Assembly: GCF_030068605.1 (NCBI RefSeq)
Contig: NZ_JASJOU010000001.1
Coordinates: forward strand, 1,488,001-1,552,000
Reading direction: 5' to 3'
DNA from: Xanthocytophaga agilis
Lineage (GTDB): Bacteria > Bacteroidota > Bacteroidia > Cytophagales > 172606-1
DNA: 64,000 nt
How positions within the stretch are numbered: position 1 is the first letter of the stretch; each line of letters opens with the position of its first letter. The position numbers and the translations under genes were made by a program. Of the stretch, positions 3,169-9,132 are shown piece by piece. The notes under the pieces are model-generated. The model was given only the letters and a program-made list of their open reading frames with translations. It did not search any database and was not told the DNA's origin.

Positions 3169-3768
3169 TTATTGTATACTTTTGATAAAGCGACGAGTAG
3201 CTCTTTCCAGATAAAGCTCAGGCTCCCAGGCATCTGGTTCTTTTTCAATGCGGTGTCTCATAATGAGGGCCATCGTAATAAAACCATGCACGATGCACAT
3301 CCATTGGAAAAACAATTCTTTGTATTCCTTATCCTCAAGCCCTGGAGTAATGGCCTTCATAGCATTTTTGATTAACTCACCAATACTGAGTACTTCCTGA
3401 GGGCGTTCTTCTGCAACAGAAGGAATCGATTCAATGCTAAACATAAGCTTATACAATTCCGGGTTCTGCTCAGCAAAATGCCAGTGTATGATAGCATACC
3501 GACATAGTTGCTTATGAGTATCTTCTATTACCTCTGCTTCAAGCATGTTGCGTAAGATGGTGAACCCATCCATGGCTACTTCAAAGAAAACAGCCTCTTT
3601 GTTTTCAAAAAACTCATATACTATCGGTGGTGTGTACTCTACCTCATCGGCAATCTTGCGAATAGTGACAGCCTGCCAGCCTTCCTTTAAAGCAATATTG
3701 CGTGCTGCCTGAAGAATGCCTGTGCGTAAGGCTTCTTTGTGTCTGGTCTTTCTATCTATACTGCTCAT
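3169..3768 (-). CDS. TetR/AcrR family transcriptional regulator
   Basis: 199 aa. The N-terminus (about 12-60) has the TetR helix-turn-helix: RNIALKEGWQAVTIRKIADEV followed by the recognition helix region TPPIVYEFFENKEAVF. The remaining helical domain binds an unknown ligand. It is the first gene of the minus-strand efflux operon. A near-perfect palindrome (3782-3816) lies immediately before its start codon and encloses a -7 box, so autorepression and repression of the downstream pump genes is the natural reading (inference). Confidence 0.93.
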   Translation of the reverse strand: MSSIDRKTRHKEALRTGILQAARNIALKEGWQAVTIRKIADEVEYTPPIVYEFFENKEAVFFEVAMDGFTILRNMLEAEVIEDTHKQLCRYAIIHWHFAEQNPELYKLMFSIESIPSVAEERPQEVLSIGELIKNAMKAITPGLEDKEYKELFFQWMCIVHGFITMALIMRHRIEKEPDAWEPELYLERATRRFIKSIQ

Positions 3769-3781
3769 ATTTTTTACATGC

Positions 3782-3816
3782 TATAAAAAAATCTAACAAA
3801 GGTAGATTTTTTTATA
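3782..3816 (-). promoter_or_regulatory. Candidate TetR operator over its own promoter
   Basis: Positions 3783-3795 (ATAAAAAAATCTA) and 3803-3815 (TAGATTTTTTTAT) are perfect inverted 13-mers separated by 7 nt; an outer T/A pair extends the arms to 14 bp (3782, 3816). The centre read on the minus strand is TACCTTTG (3804-3797), matching the Bacteroidota -7 consensus TAnnTTTG. A repressor bound here would cover the promoter. No clear -33 TTTG at the standard spacing. Confidence 0.65.
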
Positions 3817-4022
3817 AAGGATAAGTATCATTCTTTCAAAAAAGTTCAAATGTGTAAGTTTGCGTTAAAAAATGTTTGTTTTTGATTGCTTAAGAGGAGG
3901 CTTATATAGGAAGACGGGCATAGTATTGTTTTACTTTATCAGAGACTCCATTTTCTTTTCGGAATAGAAATTAGAAATTTGAGTTTTACTTCTGTTGAAA
4001 ATCGTCTACAACCATTCTTTAT

Positions 4023-5075
4023 ATGTCGCTTCCTTTCCCAGATATTGCACCTATTACACGCTATTTACGTGCAAAAGCCAGCTCACATCTGCTGGTAGCA
4101 GCTGTTCACCATTTACCTGTTTTCGAGATACTTTCTCATGGACCTTTATCTATTACCGAACTACAGGAGCAATTAGCCATAAAAAATCGCCCGGCAATGG
4201 TCTTATTTCCCGCACTCTGTGCTATGGGAATGATTTGTTACACAGAGGATAAAAAACTAAGCCTTACGGAGTTGGGACGTTATCTCACCAAATCCAATCT
4301 ACACAATCTGATAGGGTATGCTGGCTTGGAAAAAGATGATCCGGGTGTATTGACTATGGTTCAGCATCTACTAAATGATGGGCCTGTGGATACAAATCAG
4401 GGCGTTTCCTATGTAAAAGATGACGAAGCACCTTCTCCTATGGACGATCCGGAAGCAGCCCGTATGTTTACACTTGCTCTGGCAGGAAGAGCCCGTTACC
4501 TCTCTCCTATTGTTGCCAGTCATCTGCCCAATCAACAAGGACATCTGTTGGATGTAGCAGGTGGTACAGGATATTACACCTATGAATGGCTGCGTGTAAA
4601 TCCACAATCAACAGCTACGGTGGTAGACCGTCCGGCAGTATTGAAGGTAGCAGCAGAGTTGCTGGAAGAATTTTGTAACAGTGATAAGGAAAATGCAGCT
4701 GATATCCAATCCAGAGTACTGTTTTTCCCGGCTGACATGTTAACAGATCCTCTGCCACAAACAGATTTTCTGTTGGCAGCCAGCCTGTTTCATGACTGGC
4801 CTGAGGATATTTGTCAGTCTCTCGCCCAAAAATTCGCCAATGCACTTCGTCCCAATGGTGAAATCTGGATACATGATGCCTTTCTGGATGATACACTGGA
4901 TGGGCCACTGGCAGTGACAGACTATTCGGCTATGCTGTTTCTAGGTACCAAAGGCAGAGCCTATAGCCGTAAAGAATATCGTCAATGGTTTTCTGCTTCA
5001 GGTCTTGTTAACGTACAGGAAGATATTCCTACCTTAATGGACTATGGCCTTATCCATGCCCGTAAACCTCTGTAG
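4023..5075 (+). CDS. SAM-dependent O-methyltransferase (winged-helix dimerisation type)
   Basis: 350 aa. Residues 10-90 form the winged-helix dimerisation domain found in acetylserotonin/hydroxyneurosporene-type small-molecule O-methyltransferases. Residues 176-184 (LDVAGGTGY) are the glycine-rich SAM-binding motif I. The conserved ASLFHDWPED stretch (catalytic His in plant and bacterial relatives) and a late acidic segment (DAFLDDTLDGP) follow. It would transfer a methyl group from SAM to a hydroxyl of an unidentified small molecule in the cytosol. It is divergent from the TetR gene across 254 bp and has no obvious partner enzyme nearby, so the substrate is unknown. Confidence 0.85.
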   Translation: MSLPFPDIAPITRYLRAKASSHLLVAAVHHLPVFEILSHGPLSITELQEQLAIKNRPAMVLFPALCAMGMICYTEDKKLSLTELGRYLTKSNLHNLIGYAGLEKDDPGVLTMVQHLLNDGPVDTNQGVSYVKDDEAPSPMDDPEAARMFTLALAGRARYLSPIVASHLPNQQGHLLDVAGGTGYYTYEWLRVNPQSTATVVDRPAVLKVAAELLEEFCNSDKENAADIQSRVLFFPADMLTDPLPQTDFLLAASLFHDWPEDICQSLAQKFANALRPNGEIWIHDAFLDDTLDGPLAVTDYSAMLFLGTKGRAYSRKEYRQWFSASGLVNVQEDIPTLMDYGLIHARKPL

Positions 5076-5813: not shown

Positions 5814-5929
5814 TTTTAAGAAAACCTGAGGCAACCAAAATAAATAATCGCCTATATATCAACATATTACATCACAAGCAAAAGTAGCTTTACCTATATC
5901 AGAAAAAATATTTTAGAAATCTTTTTCAC

Positions 5930-5966
5930 TACGCAAATAGGCTGCGTAGCGTCAGAGATATCTTTG
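5930..5966 (+). promoter_or_regulatory. Palindrome and -7 box upstream of the split-tRNA array
   Basis: 5930-5936 (CTACGCA) and 5943-5949 (TGCGTAG) form a perfect 7-bp inverted repeat with a 7-nt centre. TATCTTTG at 5959-5966 matches the Bacteroidota -7 element TAnnTTTG; at N19 upstream there is no TTTG, and the palindrome overlaps that place, as an activator or repressor site would. Transcription from here would begin about 10 nt before the first GGTCAA-N8-TACTTCT motif. The rest of 5814-5929 is AT-rich with nothing recognised. Confidence 0.5.
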
Positions 5967-5980
5967 TAACATCAAATGCA

Positions 5981-6001
5981 GGTCAAGAATAAGTTACTTC
6001 T
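5981..6001 (+). repeat. 21-nt motif copy 1 (GGTCAA-N8-TACTTCT)
   Basis: GGTCAA at 5981-5986 and TACTTCT at 5995-6001. It lies 47 nt before the acceptor stem of the first tRNA. A T-run/A-run and the block AATTACC (6030-6036) follow, an arrangement repeated after copies 4 and 6. Confidence 0.85.
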
Positions 6002-6097
6002 AAACTTCCTTTTAAGAAAAAACTCTTTCAATTACCGCATTTGTCTTTGAAGCAGTAGTTCAGTGGTAGAACGACGTATAACATTAAGATTATCACT

Positions 6098-6181
6098 ATG
6101 GTCAATTTAGTCATACTTCAACTGGCAAGAATCTCTTCGGAGATTCTTTGGTTCGATCCCAAAATGACTGAAAATTACCAT
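6098..6181 (+). ncRNA. tRNA-like structure lacking a D arm, inside the tRNA-Asp insertion
   Basis: A long basal stem pairs 6098-6114 with 6164-6181 (AGTCAT/ATGACT, AATTT/AAATT, ATGGT/ACCAT with small bulges). Inside it are a perfect 9-bp hairpin with a UUCG tetraloop (6127-6148) and a T-arm mimic with loop TTCGATC (6152-6158) closed by TTTGG/CCAAA. The hairpin and T-stem share two bases, so one must open by 2 bp. There is no D arm. Bacterial Y RNAs (YrlA) are the best-known RNAs with a tRNA-mimicking module on a long basal stem, which makes that a possible relation, but no Ro/TROVE gene is seen here. Structure was judged by eye. Confidence 0.55.
6100..6120 (+). repeat. 21-nt motif copy 2 (GGTCAA-N8-TACTTCA)
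   Basis: GGTCAA 6100-6105, TACTTCA 6114-6120; last base differs from the consensus. It overlaps the 5' basal strand of the inserted tRNA-like RNA and directly precedes its hairpin/T-arm part. Confidence 0.75.
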
Positions 6182-6184
6182 TCT

Positions 6185-6205
6185 GGTCAAAACATGTTTA
6201 CTTCC
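6185..6205 (+). repeat. 21-nt motif copy 3 (GGTCAA-N8-TACTTCC)
   Basis: GGTCAA 6185-6190, TACTTCC 6199-6205. It ends one base before the 3' part of the Asp-type tRNA (6207). Confidence 0.8.
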
Positions 6206-6259
6206 AGCCTGTCACGCCGTAGGTCGTAGGTTCGATTCCTACCTGCTTCGCAAAATCAA

Positions 6260-6280
6260 GGTCAAGTCAGGCTTACTTCT
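6260..6280 (+). repeat. 21-nt motif copy 4 (GGTCAA-N8-TACTTCT)
   Basis: GGTCAA 6260-6265, TACTTCT 6274-6280. It lies between the two tRNAs, 10 nt after the first and about 60 nt before the second; a T-run/A-run and AATTACC (6308-6314) follow as after copy 1. Confidence 0.85.
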
Positions 6281-6339
6281 CTTTTTTTTGGTAAAAAACA
6301 GCTTTACAATTACCTAATTTTAACTAAAGTATACAATAT

Positions 6340-6460
6340 GAAGGCAGTAGCTCAGCGGTAGAGCACTAGATTGAAAAGTATTGAAATTACCCGATGGGTC
6401 AATCAAGACTTACTTCTCAATGGGTTCTAGGGGTCGCTGGTTCGAATCCAGCCTGCCTTC
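6340..6460 (+). tRNA. Interrupted tRNA with 48-nt insertion in the anticodon loop (Pro- or Phe-type)
   Basis: The 5' part has acceptor AAGGCAG (6341-6347; G6340 can extend it to 8 bp with C6460), T8-A9, D arm GCTC-AGCGGTA-GAGC and anticodon stem CTAGA (6366-6370). The 3' part has TCTAG (6426-6430), variable GGGTC, T arm GCTGG-TTCGAAT-CCAGC and acceptor CTGCCTT. The 55 nt between the stem strands contain a 7-nt loop plus a 48-nt insert. Two junctions give normal loops: TT+TGGGT (anticodon TGG, Pro, with G37) or TTGAAAA (anticodon GAA, Phe), so the isotype is unresolved. The insert can fold as a hairpin in which 6371-6380 pairs with 6411-6420 at 9 of 10 positions. The G-1:C73 pair is otherwise a tRNA-His trait. 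Confidence 0.75.
6397..6417 (+). repeat. 21-nt motif copy 5 (GGTCAA-N8-TACTTCT)
   Basis: GGTCAA 6397-6402, TACTTCT 6411-6417. It ends 3 nt before TGGGT-TCTAG, the 3' part of the second tRNA. Its TACTTCT half can pair with AAAAGTA at 6374-6380. Confidence 0.85.
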
Positions 6461-6468
6461 CAAATTAA

Positions 6469-6489
6469 GGTCAAGGAGTACTTACTTCT
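6469..6489 (+). repeat. 21-nt motif copy 6 (GGTCAA-N8-TACTTCT)
   Basis: GGTCAA 6469-6474, TACTTCT 6483-6489. It sits 8 nt after the second tRNA and 56 nt before the ATG of the RING/TerD gene, linking that gene to the array. Confidence 0.85.
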
Positions 6490-6545
6490 ATTTTCTCAAA
6501 AAAAAATAGTTCTCCGATTATCTGATTTAACGATTAACTACAACT

Positions 6546-8777
6546 ATGAATCCATTTATTACAGTAAGCCTTCGTCAAAAGGCCATTTTTATTCCGAATG
6601 TAGAAAATGCTACAATCAACAAAACGCTTAGAGGAACTACCTCAGTGCTGGTAGCCAATTTAGGTAAATTAGGATATGGTGTATCTGAACCTTTATTGCA
6701 TGCACTTAATCAGACAACACCTGCTTTCCAGGCAAATCTACTGGAGAAGTTTCGGGAAGTAATGGGCGTCAACAAGAACTGGACTCCATTGGTAAAAGGA
6801 TGGGATACACCAACAGGTGAGACTGTAACAGATCATATCATTACATTCTTTGTCAATGTCTTTGAAGGACGTGGTACTACACTGCCTTGTGGACACATTA
6901 TTCCAGCTAATACATTTCCATTGGAACGCTACAATGGTTGCCCATTCTGCGGAACGCCGTTTGAGTTTGGAAAAGTTGAATTGTATGGTCAGGGAAGTAA
7001 GCTAAAAATGCTGGAGCTATGGACTGAGAAAGAGCTAAAAAACTTTTTCAAAGATTTACTTACATCCAAAACAGCATTAGATGCCACACAGATTGATAGT
7101 CTGAAAATCTTATTGAAAGAACTGCCATTGCCGGAAGTGTCTATCGGAATGAAAGAAACACTGATGACAGTGATAGATATATGTATTGAGCAAAACCAAC
7201 CCGAAAAAGCACAGGCATTGTTTACTTCTCCTACGGATATCCTGCGTTATCTGTGGTATAAGCATACAGGTTTCTTACAGATTATAGAGCCAAAGACCAT
7301 TATCCAGCGCCATAAAAACAATAACAGGCATACTGTGTCCTTGCTGGGAAATAGTGCAAAAGCGAAACTGGCTGCTAAAGATGCATTAAAGCTGAAATAC
7401 AGTCGTAAGACTAGTAGTATGGTAGCGCATTGGTTGAACAATCTGCCAATGGACGCAGAAAAGATGTGTGAGATGATGCACCCAAAACGTGGAATGTGGG
7501 TACGGTTTATCCGGGCGTTACGTCTGGCTGAATACAGCAAACGTGCAGGCTTTGAGAAGCTGAAAGAGATGATGGATTTGTTTTACAATCAGGTGTATGA
7601 AGTATGGCAGGGACGTGTCAATCAGTTCCGTCTGCGTATGGATCAGGATAATACCTTAAAACTGTTGAAACAACGTCCGGGTCTTTTTGCACGATCGCTG
7701 TTTGCCAATATGTTATGGTTTGGAAGCGAACCTGTTGTCGAGGCTTTTGCGGAAGTCATTGACAAAGTACCTGCTCGTCTGGTATTTACCTTGAATATGT
7801 ATGCAGAAAATTATTTCACGAAAGGCTTTAACCGGGTAGTAAAACCACTGGGAGGTGTTAGCAAGAATATTCCGGCCAATGCACTTCTACCTTTATACAA
7901 TGATGATCAGCTGGATGAGATGAAGTCAGCAGTAGCCGATCTTTGTCTGGTTGCCATGGAAAAACGTTTTGCAGCACAGGAAACAAAAAGCAAAACTATT
8001 TACATTGATCCGATCCTGTTTAAGATGCCTGTATCTATCGGTGACCGTAGTGACAATGTGCAGGATTTGCCTTCGGCTTTAATGGGAACTCGTTTTCCAA
8101 TTGAAGGAGACACCGTACGTTTATTTATGCAGTGGGGAACAGGTTTGCCTGCCCAACATATGGATATGGACTTGAGTTGTCATATTGCGTTTGCGTCTAG
8201 AATGGAATTCTGCTCTTACTCTTCTCTGGTAGCAACCGGCTGTAAGCACAGTGGAGATATCCGAAGCATTCCAAACCAGATTGGAACAGCCGAATACATT
8301 GAAATCAATGTAAATGAACTGCGTAAGGCACAGGCAAAATATGTAACGTTTACTTGCAATGCGTATAGCAATGGCTCTATCACCCCTAATCTGGTGATTG
8401 GCTGGATGAACACTCGCTTTCCAATGAAGATATCTGAACAAACCGGAGTAGCCTATGATCCATCCTGTGTACAGTATCAGGTTCGTGTAACCAATAGTCT
8501 GGCAAAGGGAATGGTATTCGGGGTACTGGATGTAGAAGCTAAAGAAGTTATCTGGCTGGAAATGCCATTTGGAGGACAGGTTGTACAAGGTCTGGATACA
8601 CGAAATATAGAATCTATGCTCAAAAAGCTGGATAGCAAGTTAAGTGTAGGAAATCTATTGTCTATCAAGGCCAATGCACAAAAACTGCAGGTTTTAGAGA
8701 CACCAGAAGCAGATGAGGTATATACCCAGCAATGGGCTATGAATGCTGCGGCAGTTACACAATTGTTAGTAGATTAA
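6546..8777 (+). CDS. RING-like zinc domain protein with TerD-like C-terminal domain (MXAN_6230/SCO0854-type)
   Basis: 743 aa, soluble, no signal peptide. Residues 115-135 hold a RING/zinc-ribbon-like site (CGH at 115-117, CPFC at 132-135). The middle (about 180-500) is helical. Around 530-640 there is a TerD-like beta-sandwich signature: RLFMQWG, DMDLS (near 540) and KHSGD (near 566), then YIEINVNELRK. The order RING, helical domain and TerD-like domain resembles the family I remember as MXAN_6230/SCO0854 RING domain proteins; that is recall, not a search. TerD domains belong to tellurite/stress-response systems. Motif copy 6 is 56 nt upstream, and no terminator separates the gene from the split tRNAs, so co-expression is likely. 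A role in binding or sensing those RNAs is inference. A strong terminator follows. Confidence 0.8.
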   Translation: MNPFITVSLRQKAIFIPNVENATINKTLRGTTSVLVANLGKLGYGVSEPLLHALNQTTPAFQANLLEKFREVMGVNKNWTPLVKGWDTPTGETVTDHIITFFVNVFEGRGTTLPCGHIIPANTFPLERYNGCPFCGTPFEFGKVELYGQGSKLKMLELWTEKELKNFFKDLLTSKTALDATQIDSLKILLKELPLPEVSIGMKETLMTVIDICIEQNQPEKAQALFTSPTDILRYLWYKHTGFLQIIEPKTIIQRHKNNNRHTVSLLGNSAKAKLAAKDALKLKYSRKTSSMVAHWLNNLPMDAEKMCEMMHPKRGMWVRFIRALRLAEYSKRAGFEKLKEMMDLFYNQVYEVWQGRVNQFRLRMDQDNTLKLLKQRPGLFARSLFANMLWFGSEPVVEAFAEVIDKVPARLVFTLNMYAENYFTKGFNRVVKPLGGVSKNIPANALLPLYNDDQLDEMKSAVADLCLVAMEKRFAAQETKSKTIYIDPILFKMPVSIGDRSDNVQDLPSALMGTRFPIEGDTVRLFMQWGTGLPAQHMDMDLSCHIAFASRMEFCSYSSLVATGCKHSGDIRSIPNQIGTAEYIEINVNELRKAQAKYVTFTCNAYSNGSITPNLVIGWMNTRFPMKISEQTGVAYDPSCVQYQVRVTNSLAKGMVFGVLDVEAKEVIWLEMPFGGQVVQGLDTRNIESMLKKLDSKLSVGNLLSIKANAQKLQVLETPEADEVYTQQWAMNAAAVTQLLVD

Positions 8778-8812
8778 TGGGCTAATCCCGAATTTGGGAT
8801 CTTAGTCTTTAT

Positions 8813-8859
8813 CCAACGCCTATGCTTTTGAAATGAGTATAGGTGTTGGGTTATTTTTT
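8813..8859 (+). terminator. Rho-independent terminator after the RING/TerD gene
   Basis: CCAACGCCTAT (8813-8823) pairs with ATAGGTGTTGG (8839-8849) over 11 bp including one G-U, followed by a T-rich run (8851-8859). It closes the split-tRNA/RING transcription unit. Confidence 0.8.
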
Positions 8860-8922
8860 AAGAAATCTATCTCCCTTCATTAGTTTATTGTCCCAATCAT
8901 TTTTCTTCTTATAGCTTCTTCC

Positions 8923-9066
8923 TTTTTTGCTTTCCCAAAAAACGAAGCAAAAAAGGGCACCTTTTCCCGATCCTCCCGCCCACTGGTCAAAGGCCAACCT
9001 CGCGGGAAAAGGAAGGCCAAAGCACCTACACCACCTACCACGATTGAAGTCATGGTCTCTCTTTGT
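8923..9066. repeat. Dispersed intergenic repeat, copy A
   Basis: About 145 bp of GC-rich sequence in an otherwise gene-free gap (8860-9132). It matches 37547-37694 along its length: TTTTTTGCTT-(G/C)-CCCAAAAAA, CCCGATCCT-CCGCCCAC, AAGGCCAACCTCGCGGGAAAA and a final TTTGTA. CCCGC and GCGGG inside it can pair. Open frames on the minus strand (8851-9099, 8880-9071) are by-products of the repeat and probably not proteins. Confidence 0.75.
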
Positions 9067-9132
9067 AGCATCTTTGTTTTTGTGAACTATGTATTTCAAT
9101 CAAGTTCTTTGCCTCAAAATTTGGGATGAATT

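What the first reader, a model, noticed from the sequence alone, without database searches (positions are those of the whole stretch)
5959..6545. Array of tRNA genes split inside the anticodon arm, upstream of a RING/TerD gene
Two tRNA-like genes have canonical acceptor, D and T arms, but each is interrupted at the anticodon arm: between bases 29 and 30 in the Asp-type (130-nt insert), and in the loop in the second (48-nt insert). The acceptor strands of each gene pair perfectly across the insertion, so neither is decayed. The break positions coincide with the region that anticodon nucleases cut, and no terminator lies before the RING/TerD gene. I infer an RNA-damage or tRNA-surrogate system in which the locus encodes ready-made tRNA halves. 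I know of tRNA-like RNAs in Rsr/YrlA and Band-7 RNA-repair loci, but not this layout.
Basis: partly seen in the sequence, partly recalled or inferred. Interest (0 to 1): 0.95.

Follow-up and report, generated by a model that had tools for sequence, protein, structure and literature searches.

The report
tRNA–Y RNA hybrids beside RING/TerD protein
These bacteria carry arrays of small RNAs that are whole tRNA bodies with a Y-RNA-like stem in place of the anticodon arm, next to a RING/TerD protein gene and often next to RNA-repair genes, which points to an unstudied RNA-repair machine rather than to broken tRNA genes.

Summary
The tRNA-like genes are real, but not split tRNAs. In each, the anticodon loop is replaced by one conserved module: GGU-CAA-N8-UACUUC pairing with N8'-n-AUU-AYC. 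The array also holds stand-alone copies and a YrlA-like copy nested inside the first tRNA. All 80 kept relatives of the RING/TerD gene (best 80 of 358) carry the motif upstream on the coding strand (358 copies; 1 downstream, 0 on the other strand). The module helix, not used for selection, covaries at 7 of 8 positions. Neighbours are RNA-repair genes: WYL regulator in 51 of 80 loci, RtcB 31, T4-Rnl1-type ligase 17, RlaP 10, TROVE/Ro60 0. The operator before the array also precedes TROVE, RtcB and ligase genes elsewhere. Nine genomes have protein and array but no TROVE gene. Best reading: an inducible RNP in which the RING/TerD protein takes Ro60's place on Y-RNA/tRNA hybrids. Binding, induction and tether-versus-decoy are inferred. 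Against: no sequence or fold link of the protein to TROVE; genome G008 has the protein without an array. New variant of a known kind (Y RNA RNPs).

The parts
5929..5949 (+). Palindromic operator CTACGCA-N7-TGCGTAG
   Evidence: One of five sites with up to 1 mismatch in the 9.77-Mb genome, and the only exact one; the site plus TTTG lies within 120 nt before the first element in 54 of 78 evaluable relatives
5959..5966 (+). TATCTTTG, fits the Bacteroidota -7 promoter element TAnnTTTG (consensus recalled)
   Evidence: Sequence; TTTG at 12-15 nt from the palindrome in relatives
5973..6043 (+). Stand-alone module 1 (GGTCAA 5981-5986, TACTTC 5995-6000, ATTACC 6031-6036, closing stem CAAATGC/GCATTTG)
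   Evidence: Folds with z -4.25
6049..6249 (+). Hybrid tRNA 1 (acceptor, D and T arms; own module strands 6080-6094 and 6185-6204, with a second element nested between)
   Evidence: fold; double-insert hybrids, by reading, also in L023, L043, L049. Its own N8 helix pairs only 5 of 8 (by eye)
6100..6179 (+). Nested permuted (YrlA-like) element: module plus hairpin plus T-arm-like loop
   Evidence: Fold of 6094-6181 z -3.84; such elements in 11 of 97 loci, this one included
6254..6320 (+). Stand-alone module 2 (GGTCAA 6260-6265, ATTACC 6309-6314); ends approximate
   Evidence: on its own not more stable than shuffles (z -0.35)
6341..6459 (+). Hybrid tRNA 2 (module 6377-6416 in the anticodon loop)
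   Evidence: Rfam tRNA 58.9 bits; model R1 112 bits, but a training member; z -1.31
6463..6528 (+). Stand-alone module 3 (GGTCAA 6469-6474, ATTATC 6517-6522); ends approximate
   Evidence: z -0.47 alone
6546..8777 (+). 743-aa protein: RING finger (aa about 113-136), helical middle, C-terminal TerD fold
   Evidence: NCBIfam NF041916 E 3.3e-41, 141 bits, below its cut-off of 600; Prok-RING_4 below cut-off here, found at E up to 1 in 41 of 41 aligned members; Foldseek TerD 2kxt E 5.1e-5

Best explanation
The array encodes trans-acting RNAs: whole tRNA bodies whose anticodon arm is a Y-RNA-like protein-binding stem, plus stand-alone stems. The downstream RING/TerD protein binds the stem module, as Ro60 binds Y RNA, and the tRNA body displays a tRNA surface to RNA-repair or RNA-quality-control enzymes (RtcB, RlaP, RNA ligases, nucleases). 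A WYL regulator switches the unit on through the palindromic operator, together with Ro60, RtcB and ligase genes where they exist. Shown: array, fold, covariation, gene linkage, shared operator sequence. Inferred: protein-RNA binding, WYL as the regulator of this operator, induction by RNA or DNA damage, and tethering as the task of the tRNA body.
For: De novo consensus fold with 20 of 27 pairs compensated; the module's 8-bp helix, not used in selection, is 89.6% paired with 7 of 8 positions changed on both sides. Stand-alone modules chosen by distance only: 78% have 7 or more of 8 pairs against 8.8% after random re-pairing. WYL, RtcB, Rnl1-type ligase and RlaP within the fetched flanks in 51, 31, 17 and 10 of 80 (families confirmed by Pfam on query or example proteins). 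Operator sites before TROVE, RtcB, ligase, WYL-adjacent and array genes. Of 17 genomes with the protein, 10 have no TROVE gene and 9 of those 10 carry the array, so Ro60 is not the partner there. TROVE loci carry a parallel module (GUGYCGUA, N, U[AC]CUUC with CUUGUUACC) beside or in tRNA-like genes. Outside Bacteroidota 9 of 11 family loci examined have N8-U[AC]CUUC stems within 900 nt (15 sites, 1.49 expected); phage Weasels2 has what reads as a YrlA-type permuted tRNA next to the family gene, with RtcB nearby. The Variovorax member lies near rtcR.
Against: No expression or binding data. The protein shows no sequence relation to TROVE (hhalign probability 0.1) and the 50 Foldseek rows shown of 769 hold no Ro60, so the Ro60 analogy rests on RNA and context. 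G008 has the protein but no array. No RtcB, WYL or ligase gene was seen beside the array in this window; in this genome the close WYL relative, both RtcB genes and the ligases seen lie on other contigs. The operator precedes the first element in 54 of 78 evaluable loci, not all, and with up to one mismatch the scan of 15 genomes gave 68 matches against 18 for the reversed control, so some sites are chance. Of 30 operator loci fetched, 14 precede a recognised member, the rest other or no ORFs. G070's hybrid-like tRNA near RtcB lacks the motif and that genome has no full-length RING/TerD gene. Hairpin modules chosen by distance only: 49% with 7+ pairs against 16%. Hybrid 2 and stand-alone modules 2 and 3 are not more stable than shuffles.
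Confidence: 0.72

Rival explanations
1. Decoy: the tRNA bodies bait anticodon nucleases or other tRNA-attacking enzymes and are protected by the protein.
For: tRNA body conserved and anticodon arm armoured; [quoted passage not shown]
Against: The anticodon loop, the usual cleavage target, is absent; many copies are stems without any tRNA body.
Confidence: 0.15
2. Cis-acting leader: the array is a 5' untranslated RNA that controls the RING/TerD gene.
For: Always upstream on the coding strand in the 80 kept loci; one promoter-like site just before the first element in this window.
Against: Motif copies vary from 1 to 11 per locus; a lone hybrid tRNA on another contig than the gene in G056 (L141, 105 bits); in 4 of the 9 loci outside Bacteroidota with stems (two Vibrio, Weasels2, Niallia) the stems lie downstream of the gene.
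Confidence: 0.07
3. Split or intron-bearing tRNAs that yield halves or spliced translating tRNAs.
For: Perfect acceptor stems and conserved T and D arms (partly by selection).
Against: In all 30 aligned members the insert is a conserved covarying module; no conserved anticodon or insert boundary; stand-alone and nested copies.
Confidence: 0.03
4. The RNAs are Y RNAs for Ro60 in trans and the RING/TerD gene is only a neighbour.
For: This genome has two TROVE genes; operator shared.
Against: Nine genomes have the array and the RING/TerD gene but no TROVE gene; TROVE 0 of 80 at these loci; TROVE loci have their own motif version.
Confidence: 0.03

Closest known systems
YrlA / bacterial Y RNAs bound by Rsr (Ro60), often in rsr-yrlBA-rtcBA operons
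   Same: tRNA-like body plus a protein-binding stem; RNA-repair context; YrlA superposes on tRNA with a circular permutation (passages of PMC11472068; PMC8394870; PMC7790460)
   Different: Here the ends lie in the acceptor stem (natural tRNA order) and the stem is closed; RNAs come in arrays with stand-alone stems; neighbouring protein is RING/TerD, not TROVE
TROVE loci of the same bacteria (L137, L140, L142, L145)
   Same: Arrays of tRNA-like genes and a motif that shares the UACUUC and UUACC parts
   Different: GUGYCGUA and CGCUUGU in place of GGUCAA and nAU; TROVE protein
MXAN_6230/SCO0854 RING family (NF041916)
   Same: Matches over residues 10-677, E 3.3e-41; RING finger
   Different: 141 bits against a cut-off of 600; no RNA partner known to me for the family
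Band-7/SPFH loci with a tRNA-like RNA (Burroughs and Aravind 2016, recalled; paper not held)
   Same: Scaffold protein plus tRNA-like RNA in RNA repair
   Different: No SPFH match in this protein; RNA details could not be compared

Membership tests
Ro60/TROVE RNP | TROVE-domain protein | tested here: not met
   TROVE not among the families matched at E up to 1 by 41 aligned members; hhalign probability 0.1; no Ro60 in the 50 Foldseek rows shown
Y RNA | Conserved helix and internal loop that binds the protein | tested here: inconclusive
   A conserved module of similar layout exists; binding not tested; no Rfam Y RNA match up to E 5
YrlA | tRNA-like body with 5' and 3' ends in the protein-binding stem (circular permutation) | tested here: not met
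   Hybrid tRNAs have their ends in the acceptor stem; only the nested element and those in 10 other loci have the permuted order
NF041916 RING family (MXAN_6230/SCO0854) | Score over curated cut-off | tested here: not met
   141.3 bits against 600; full-length distant relative
Functional elongator tRNA | Anticodon loop | tested here: not met
   Loop replaced by the module in all 30 aligned members
RNA-repair gene cluster | RNA ligase and nucleotidyltransferase in the neighbourhood | tested here: met
   RtcB 31, Rnl1-type 17, RlaP 10 of 80 loci; not in this window

The most novel reading that the evidence does not exclude
The RING/TerD family is a second, Ro60-independent family of Y-RNA-binding scaffold proteins spread over Bacteroidota, Actinomycetota, Deinococcota, Bacillota, Pseudomonadota and phages; in Bacteroidota its RNAs became un-permuted tRNA hybrids with a free acceptor end that could be matured, CCA-tailed or even charged.
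Probability: 0.5. Interest if true: 0.9.

Novelty: new variant of a known kind. Interest (0 to 1): 0.85.

Why it matters
Ro60/Y RNA complexes occur in animals and bacteria, yet what Y RNAs do is still debated. A separate protein family that uses the same kind of RNA, fused to real tRNA bodies and apparently co-regulated with RNA ligases, gives an independent case from which the task of the tRNA part can be tested genetically. It also offers a partner RNA and a pathway for a widespread RING/TerD family of unknown function, and shows arrays that ARAGORN misses.

Tried and rejected
Rejected: decayed tRNAs (arms and pairs conserved); chance (80 of 80 kept loci, strand-specific); a virus-borne origin (8 stretches in viral contigs matched a pattern, none confirmed; distant relatives do occur in 6 phage records); homology of the middle region to TROVE. 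PADLOC: no match for the protein at E up to 0.1. Foldseek rows naming large toxins have TM at most 0.2 and rmsd over 24 A and were ignored. The first AlphaFold model was weak (pTM 0.45) and was replaced. The distance-only test of hairpin modules gave a diluted result, kept in the report. Papers: Chen 2014, Wang 2018, Sim and Wolin 2018, Burroughs and Aravind 2016 are not held; 0 papers name MXAN_6230 or SCO0854; in the listings of searches I saw no title or abstract describing this layout, but subscription papers and preprints were not searched.

Full report
What is there. The window lies in a 9.77-Mb genome (G000) whose kin are Bacteroidota. Upstream of a 743-aa gene (6546-8777) stand two tRNA-like genes. 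Rfam tRNA matches the second at 58.9 bits with 49 extra bases in the anticodon loop; ARAGORN finds none. The first folds as a single nested RNA (z -3.34); the second is no more stable than shuffles (z -1.31). Both inserts, and three further places in the array, share one motif: GGUCAA, eight bases, UACUUC, and opposite it the complementary eight bases, one base, AUUACC or AUUAUC. In the tRNA-like genes the motif sits in a closed hairpin in place of the anticodon loop. In stand-alone copies the same two strands occur in the other order, with the ends at the other side. In hybrid tRNA 1 a third form, with a T-arm-like loop, is nested inside (6100-6179).

Conservation. 10 of 59 genomes searched, own included, have the protein (an eleventh match in G051 is a distant 741-aa protein), as do 7 further genomes with a full-length relative in a draw of 296 from the phylum (five more matched by a TerD-like stretch only). 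Of these 17 loci (L001-L010, L017-L023) 16 carry the motif upstream, none downstream or on the other strand; L010 in G008 has none. A scan of genome contigs found 358 relatives and kept the best 80, from Flavobacterium, Hymenobacter, Niastella, Chitinophaga, Aquimarina and others; more than half are Flavobacterium. All 80 have the motif upstream on the coding strand: 358 copies (355 within 1.5 kb), 1 downstream, 0 on the opposite strand. With a covariance model of 30 hybrid tRNAs (R1), 71 of the 80 loci have at least one full-length hybrid at E up to 1e-9, 88 matches in all, all on the plus strand and upstream; 18 training sequences come from 16 of these loci and match by construction. Loci without such a match: L033, L036, L040, L045, L049, L053, L079, L090, L106.

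Structure. The 30 sequences were chosen for paired acceptor and T stems (120 candidates, 106 distinct, 71 after filters, thinned to 30 below 86% similarity), so those stems count as selected. The module helix was not selected on pairing: 89.6% of its cells pair and 7 of 8 positions show changes on both sides; for the whole structure 0 of 500 shuffles reach the observed values. RNAalifold, without being told, returns the same 27 pairs, 20 with compensatory changes. For stand-alone modules chosen by distance only, 120 distinct, 78% have at least 7 of 8 pairs against 8.8% after random re-pairing; for the hairpin form chosen the same way, 61 distinct, the figures are 49% and 16%, probably lowered because some neighbouring strands were mispaired.

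Other places. In 30 genomes the listed R1 matches of ordinary tRNA length reach at most 56 bits; matches of 67 bits or more occur in all 13 scanned genomes with the protein and in 1 of 17 without it, G070. G008's match is away from its gene and has a decayed motif. In G070 the RNA lies behind an RtcB gene with two RlaP genes and a WYL gene nearby, but it lacks the motif. A further hybrid lies on another contig than the gene in G056 (L141).

Neighbours and regulation. In the 80 loci (up to 6 kb each side, less where contigs end) tblastn finds a WYL regulator in 51, RtcB in 31, a T4-Rnl1-type ligase in 17, RlaP in 10, TROVE in 0; the families of these queries or of relatives rest on Pfam. Among 29 non-Flavobacterium loci the commonest neighbour is again WYL (9), on the opposite strand upstream of the array in those shown; an exonuclease of the RNase_T family occurs in 4 of 29 and 3 of 7 Flavobacterium loci, and a gene of that Pfam family lies downstream in the Segatella plasmid locus too. 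Just before the array lies the palindrome CTACGCA-N7-TGCGTAG followed by TATCTTTG. In this genome only five sites have up to one mismatch, with 0 for the reversed control: this one, one before a TROVE gene, one between a WYL gene and a small Cys-rich gene, one before a tRNA-His gene, and one in what looks like a terminator hairpin. With TTTG at a fixed spacing, exact sites occur in 10 of 15 genomes; with up to one mismatch there are 68 matches against 18 for the reversed control. Of 11 scanned genomes with a WYL relative of 45% identity or more (in G007 a fragment) 10 have an exact site, G079 having only near ones; of 4 with a distant or no relative none has. Of the 30 loci fetched, 14 have a recognised member behind the site: TROVE (2), RtcB (3), Rnl1-type ligase, relatives of ORF461 and of a Cys-rich protein, arrays, the tRNA-His gene and the WYL-adjacent site; in L148 the palindrome read from the other side precedes the WYL gene itself. 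The others precede unrelated, unknown or no ORFs. In the 80 loci the site precedes the first element within 120 nt in 54 of 78 evaluable; 153 sites on the plus and 5 on the minus strand.

The protein. NCBIfam NF041916 matches over 10-677 but under its cut-off. Prok-RING_4 is found in 41 of 41 aligned members at E up to 1. The second AlphaFold model (38 rows, pLDDT 75.9, pTM 0.67) matches TerD (2kxt, E 5.1e-5, TM 0.54 by target length). The middle is helical; neither the Foldseek rows shown nor hhalign links it to TROVE.

Is Ro60 the partner? TROVE was sought in 20 genomes: of 17 with the RING/TerD protein 10 have none, and 9 of these 10 have the array (several are draft assemblies, one with 7% contamination). 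TROVE loci of relatives have their own arrays of tRNA-like genes with a sister motif, GUGYCGUA...U[AC]CUUC and CUUGUUACC. So one RNA design appears with two protein families.

Outside Bacteroidota. The searches gave 15 plasmid and 6 phage records outside Bacteroidota or of unstated host; I examined 11 of these 21. Nine of the 11 have N8-U[AC]CUUC stems within 900 nt of the gene, 15 sites against 1.49 expected in shuffles (the test was framed after the sequences had been seen, and the two Vibrio loci and some Streptomyces loci are close relatives). L112 and L197 fail the strict test though they hold the UCCUUC string. Phage Weasels2 holds three stems and, by reading, a YrlA-type permuted tRNA (T arm, closed acceptor stem, D arm; L117 7447-7585), with RtcB about 3 kb on. 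The minimum-energy fold of that stretch keeps the T, acceptor and D arms but not the Y stem. The Variovorax member lies near rtcR, three small genes between.

Mechanism. Published passages say Y RNA tethers Rsr to PNPase and that the tRNA-like part may act as decoy. By analogy I infer that the RING/TerD protein holds the module and the tRNA body recruits or mimics tRNA for repair enzymes, induced by a WYL regulator. None of the binding steps was tested. That Y RNA superposes on tRNA with a circular permutation is from passages of PMC11472068; the hybrids are the same kind of object in natural tRNA order.

Noticed in passing
L138:4111-4233 (G000:C1:637110-637232): The same operator stands directly before a tRNA-His-like gene (anticodon GTG by ARAGORN, odd anticodon loop by eye) that has no similar copy in the genome at E up to 0.001; an operator-controlled tRNA would be unusual.
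   Followed up: partly
L142:5500-7400; L145:3900-5200 (-); L137:5560-5940; L140: TROVE/Ro60 loci carry arrays of tRNA-like genes with a sister Y-type motif; RNA ligase genes (Pfam) lie beside them in L140 and L142.
   Followed up: partly
L117:7260-7650 (phage Weasels2): What reads as a YrlA-type permuted tRNA, and three stems, next to a RING/TerD-family gene, RtcB about 3 kb away.
   Followed up: partly
L112:1984-7187 (Variovorax plasmid): RING family 4 gene divergent from a small gene cluster that includes rtcR.
   Followed up: partly
L137:4151-5536, 3680-4141, 8737-9111: A 461-aa family and two small Cys-rich proteins without Pfam match lie at or near operator sites; a relative of the first in G004 and of the 124-aa one in G258 also do.
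   Followed up: no
A3 column pair 3:149: 6 of 30 hybrid tRNAs have a G-U pair at acceptor position 3-70, the alanine identity element (recalled); 19 have A-U and 5 G-C, so not a general feature.
   Followed up: no
L011 (G051:C51): A 741-aa protein with a partly similar middle region (26% over 274-426) lies near a one-mismatch operator site.
   Followed up: no
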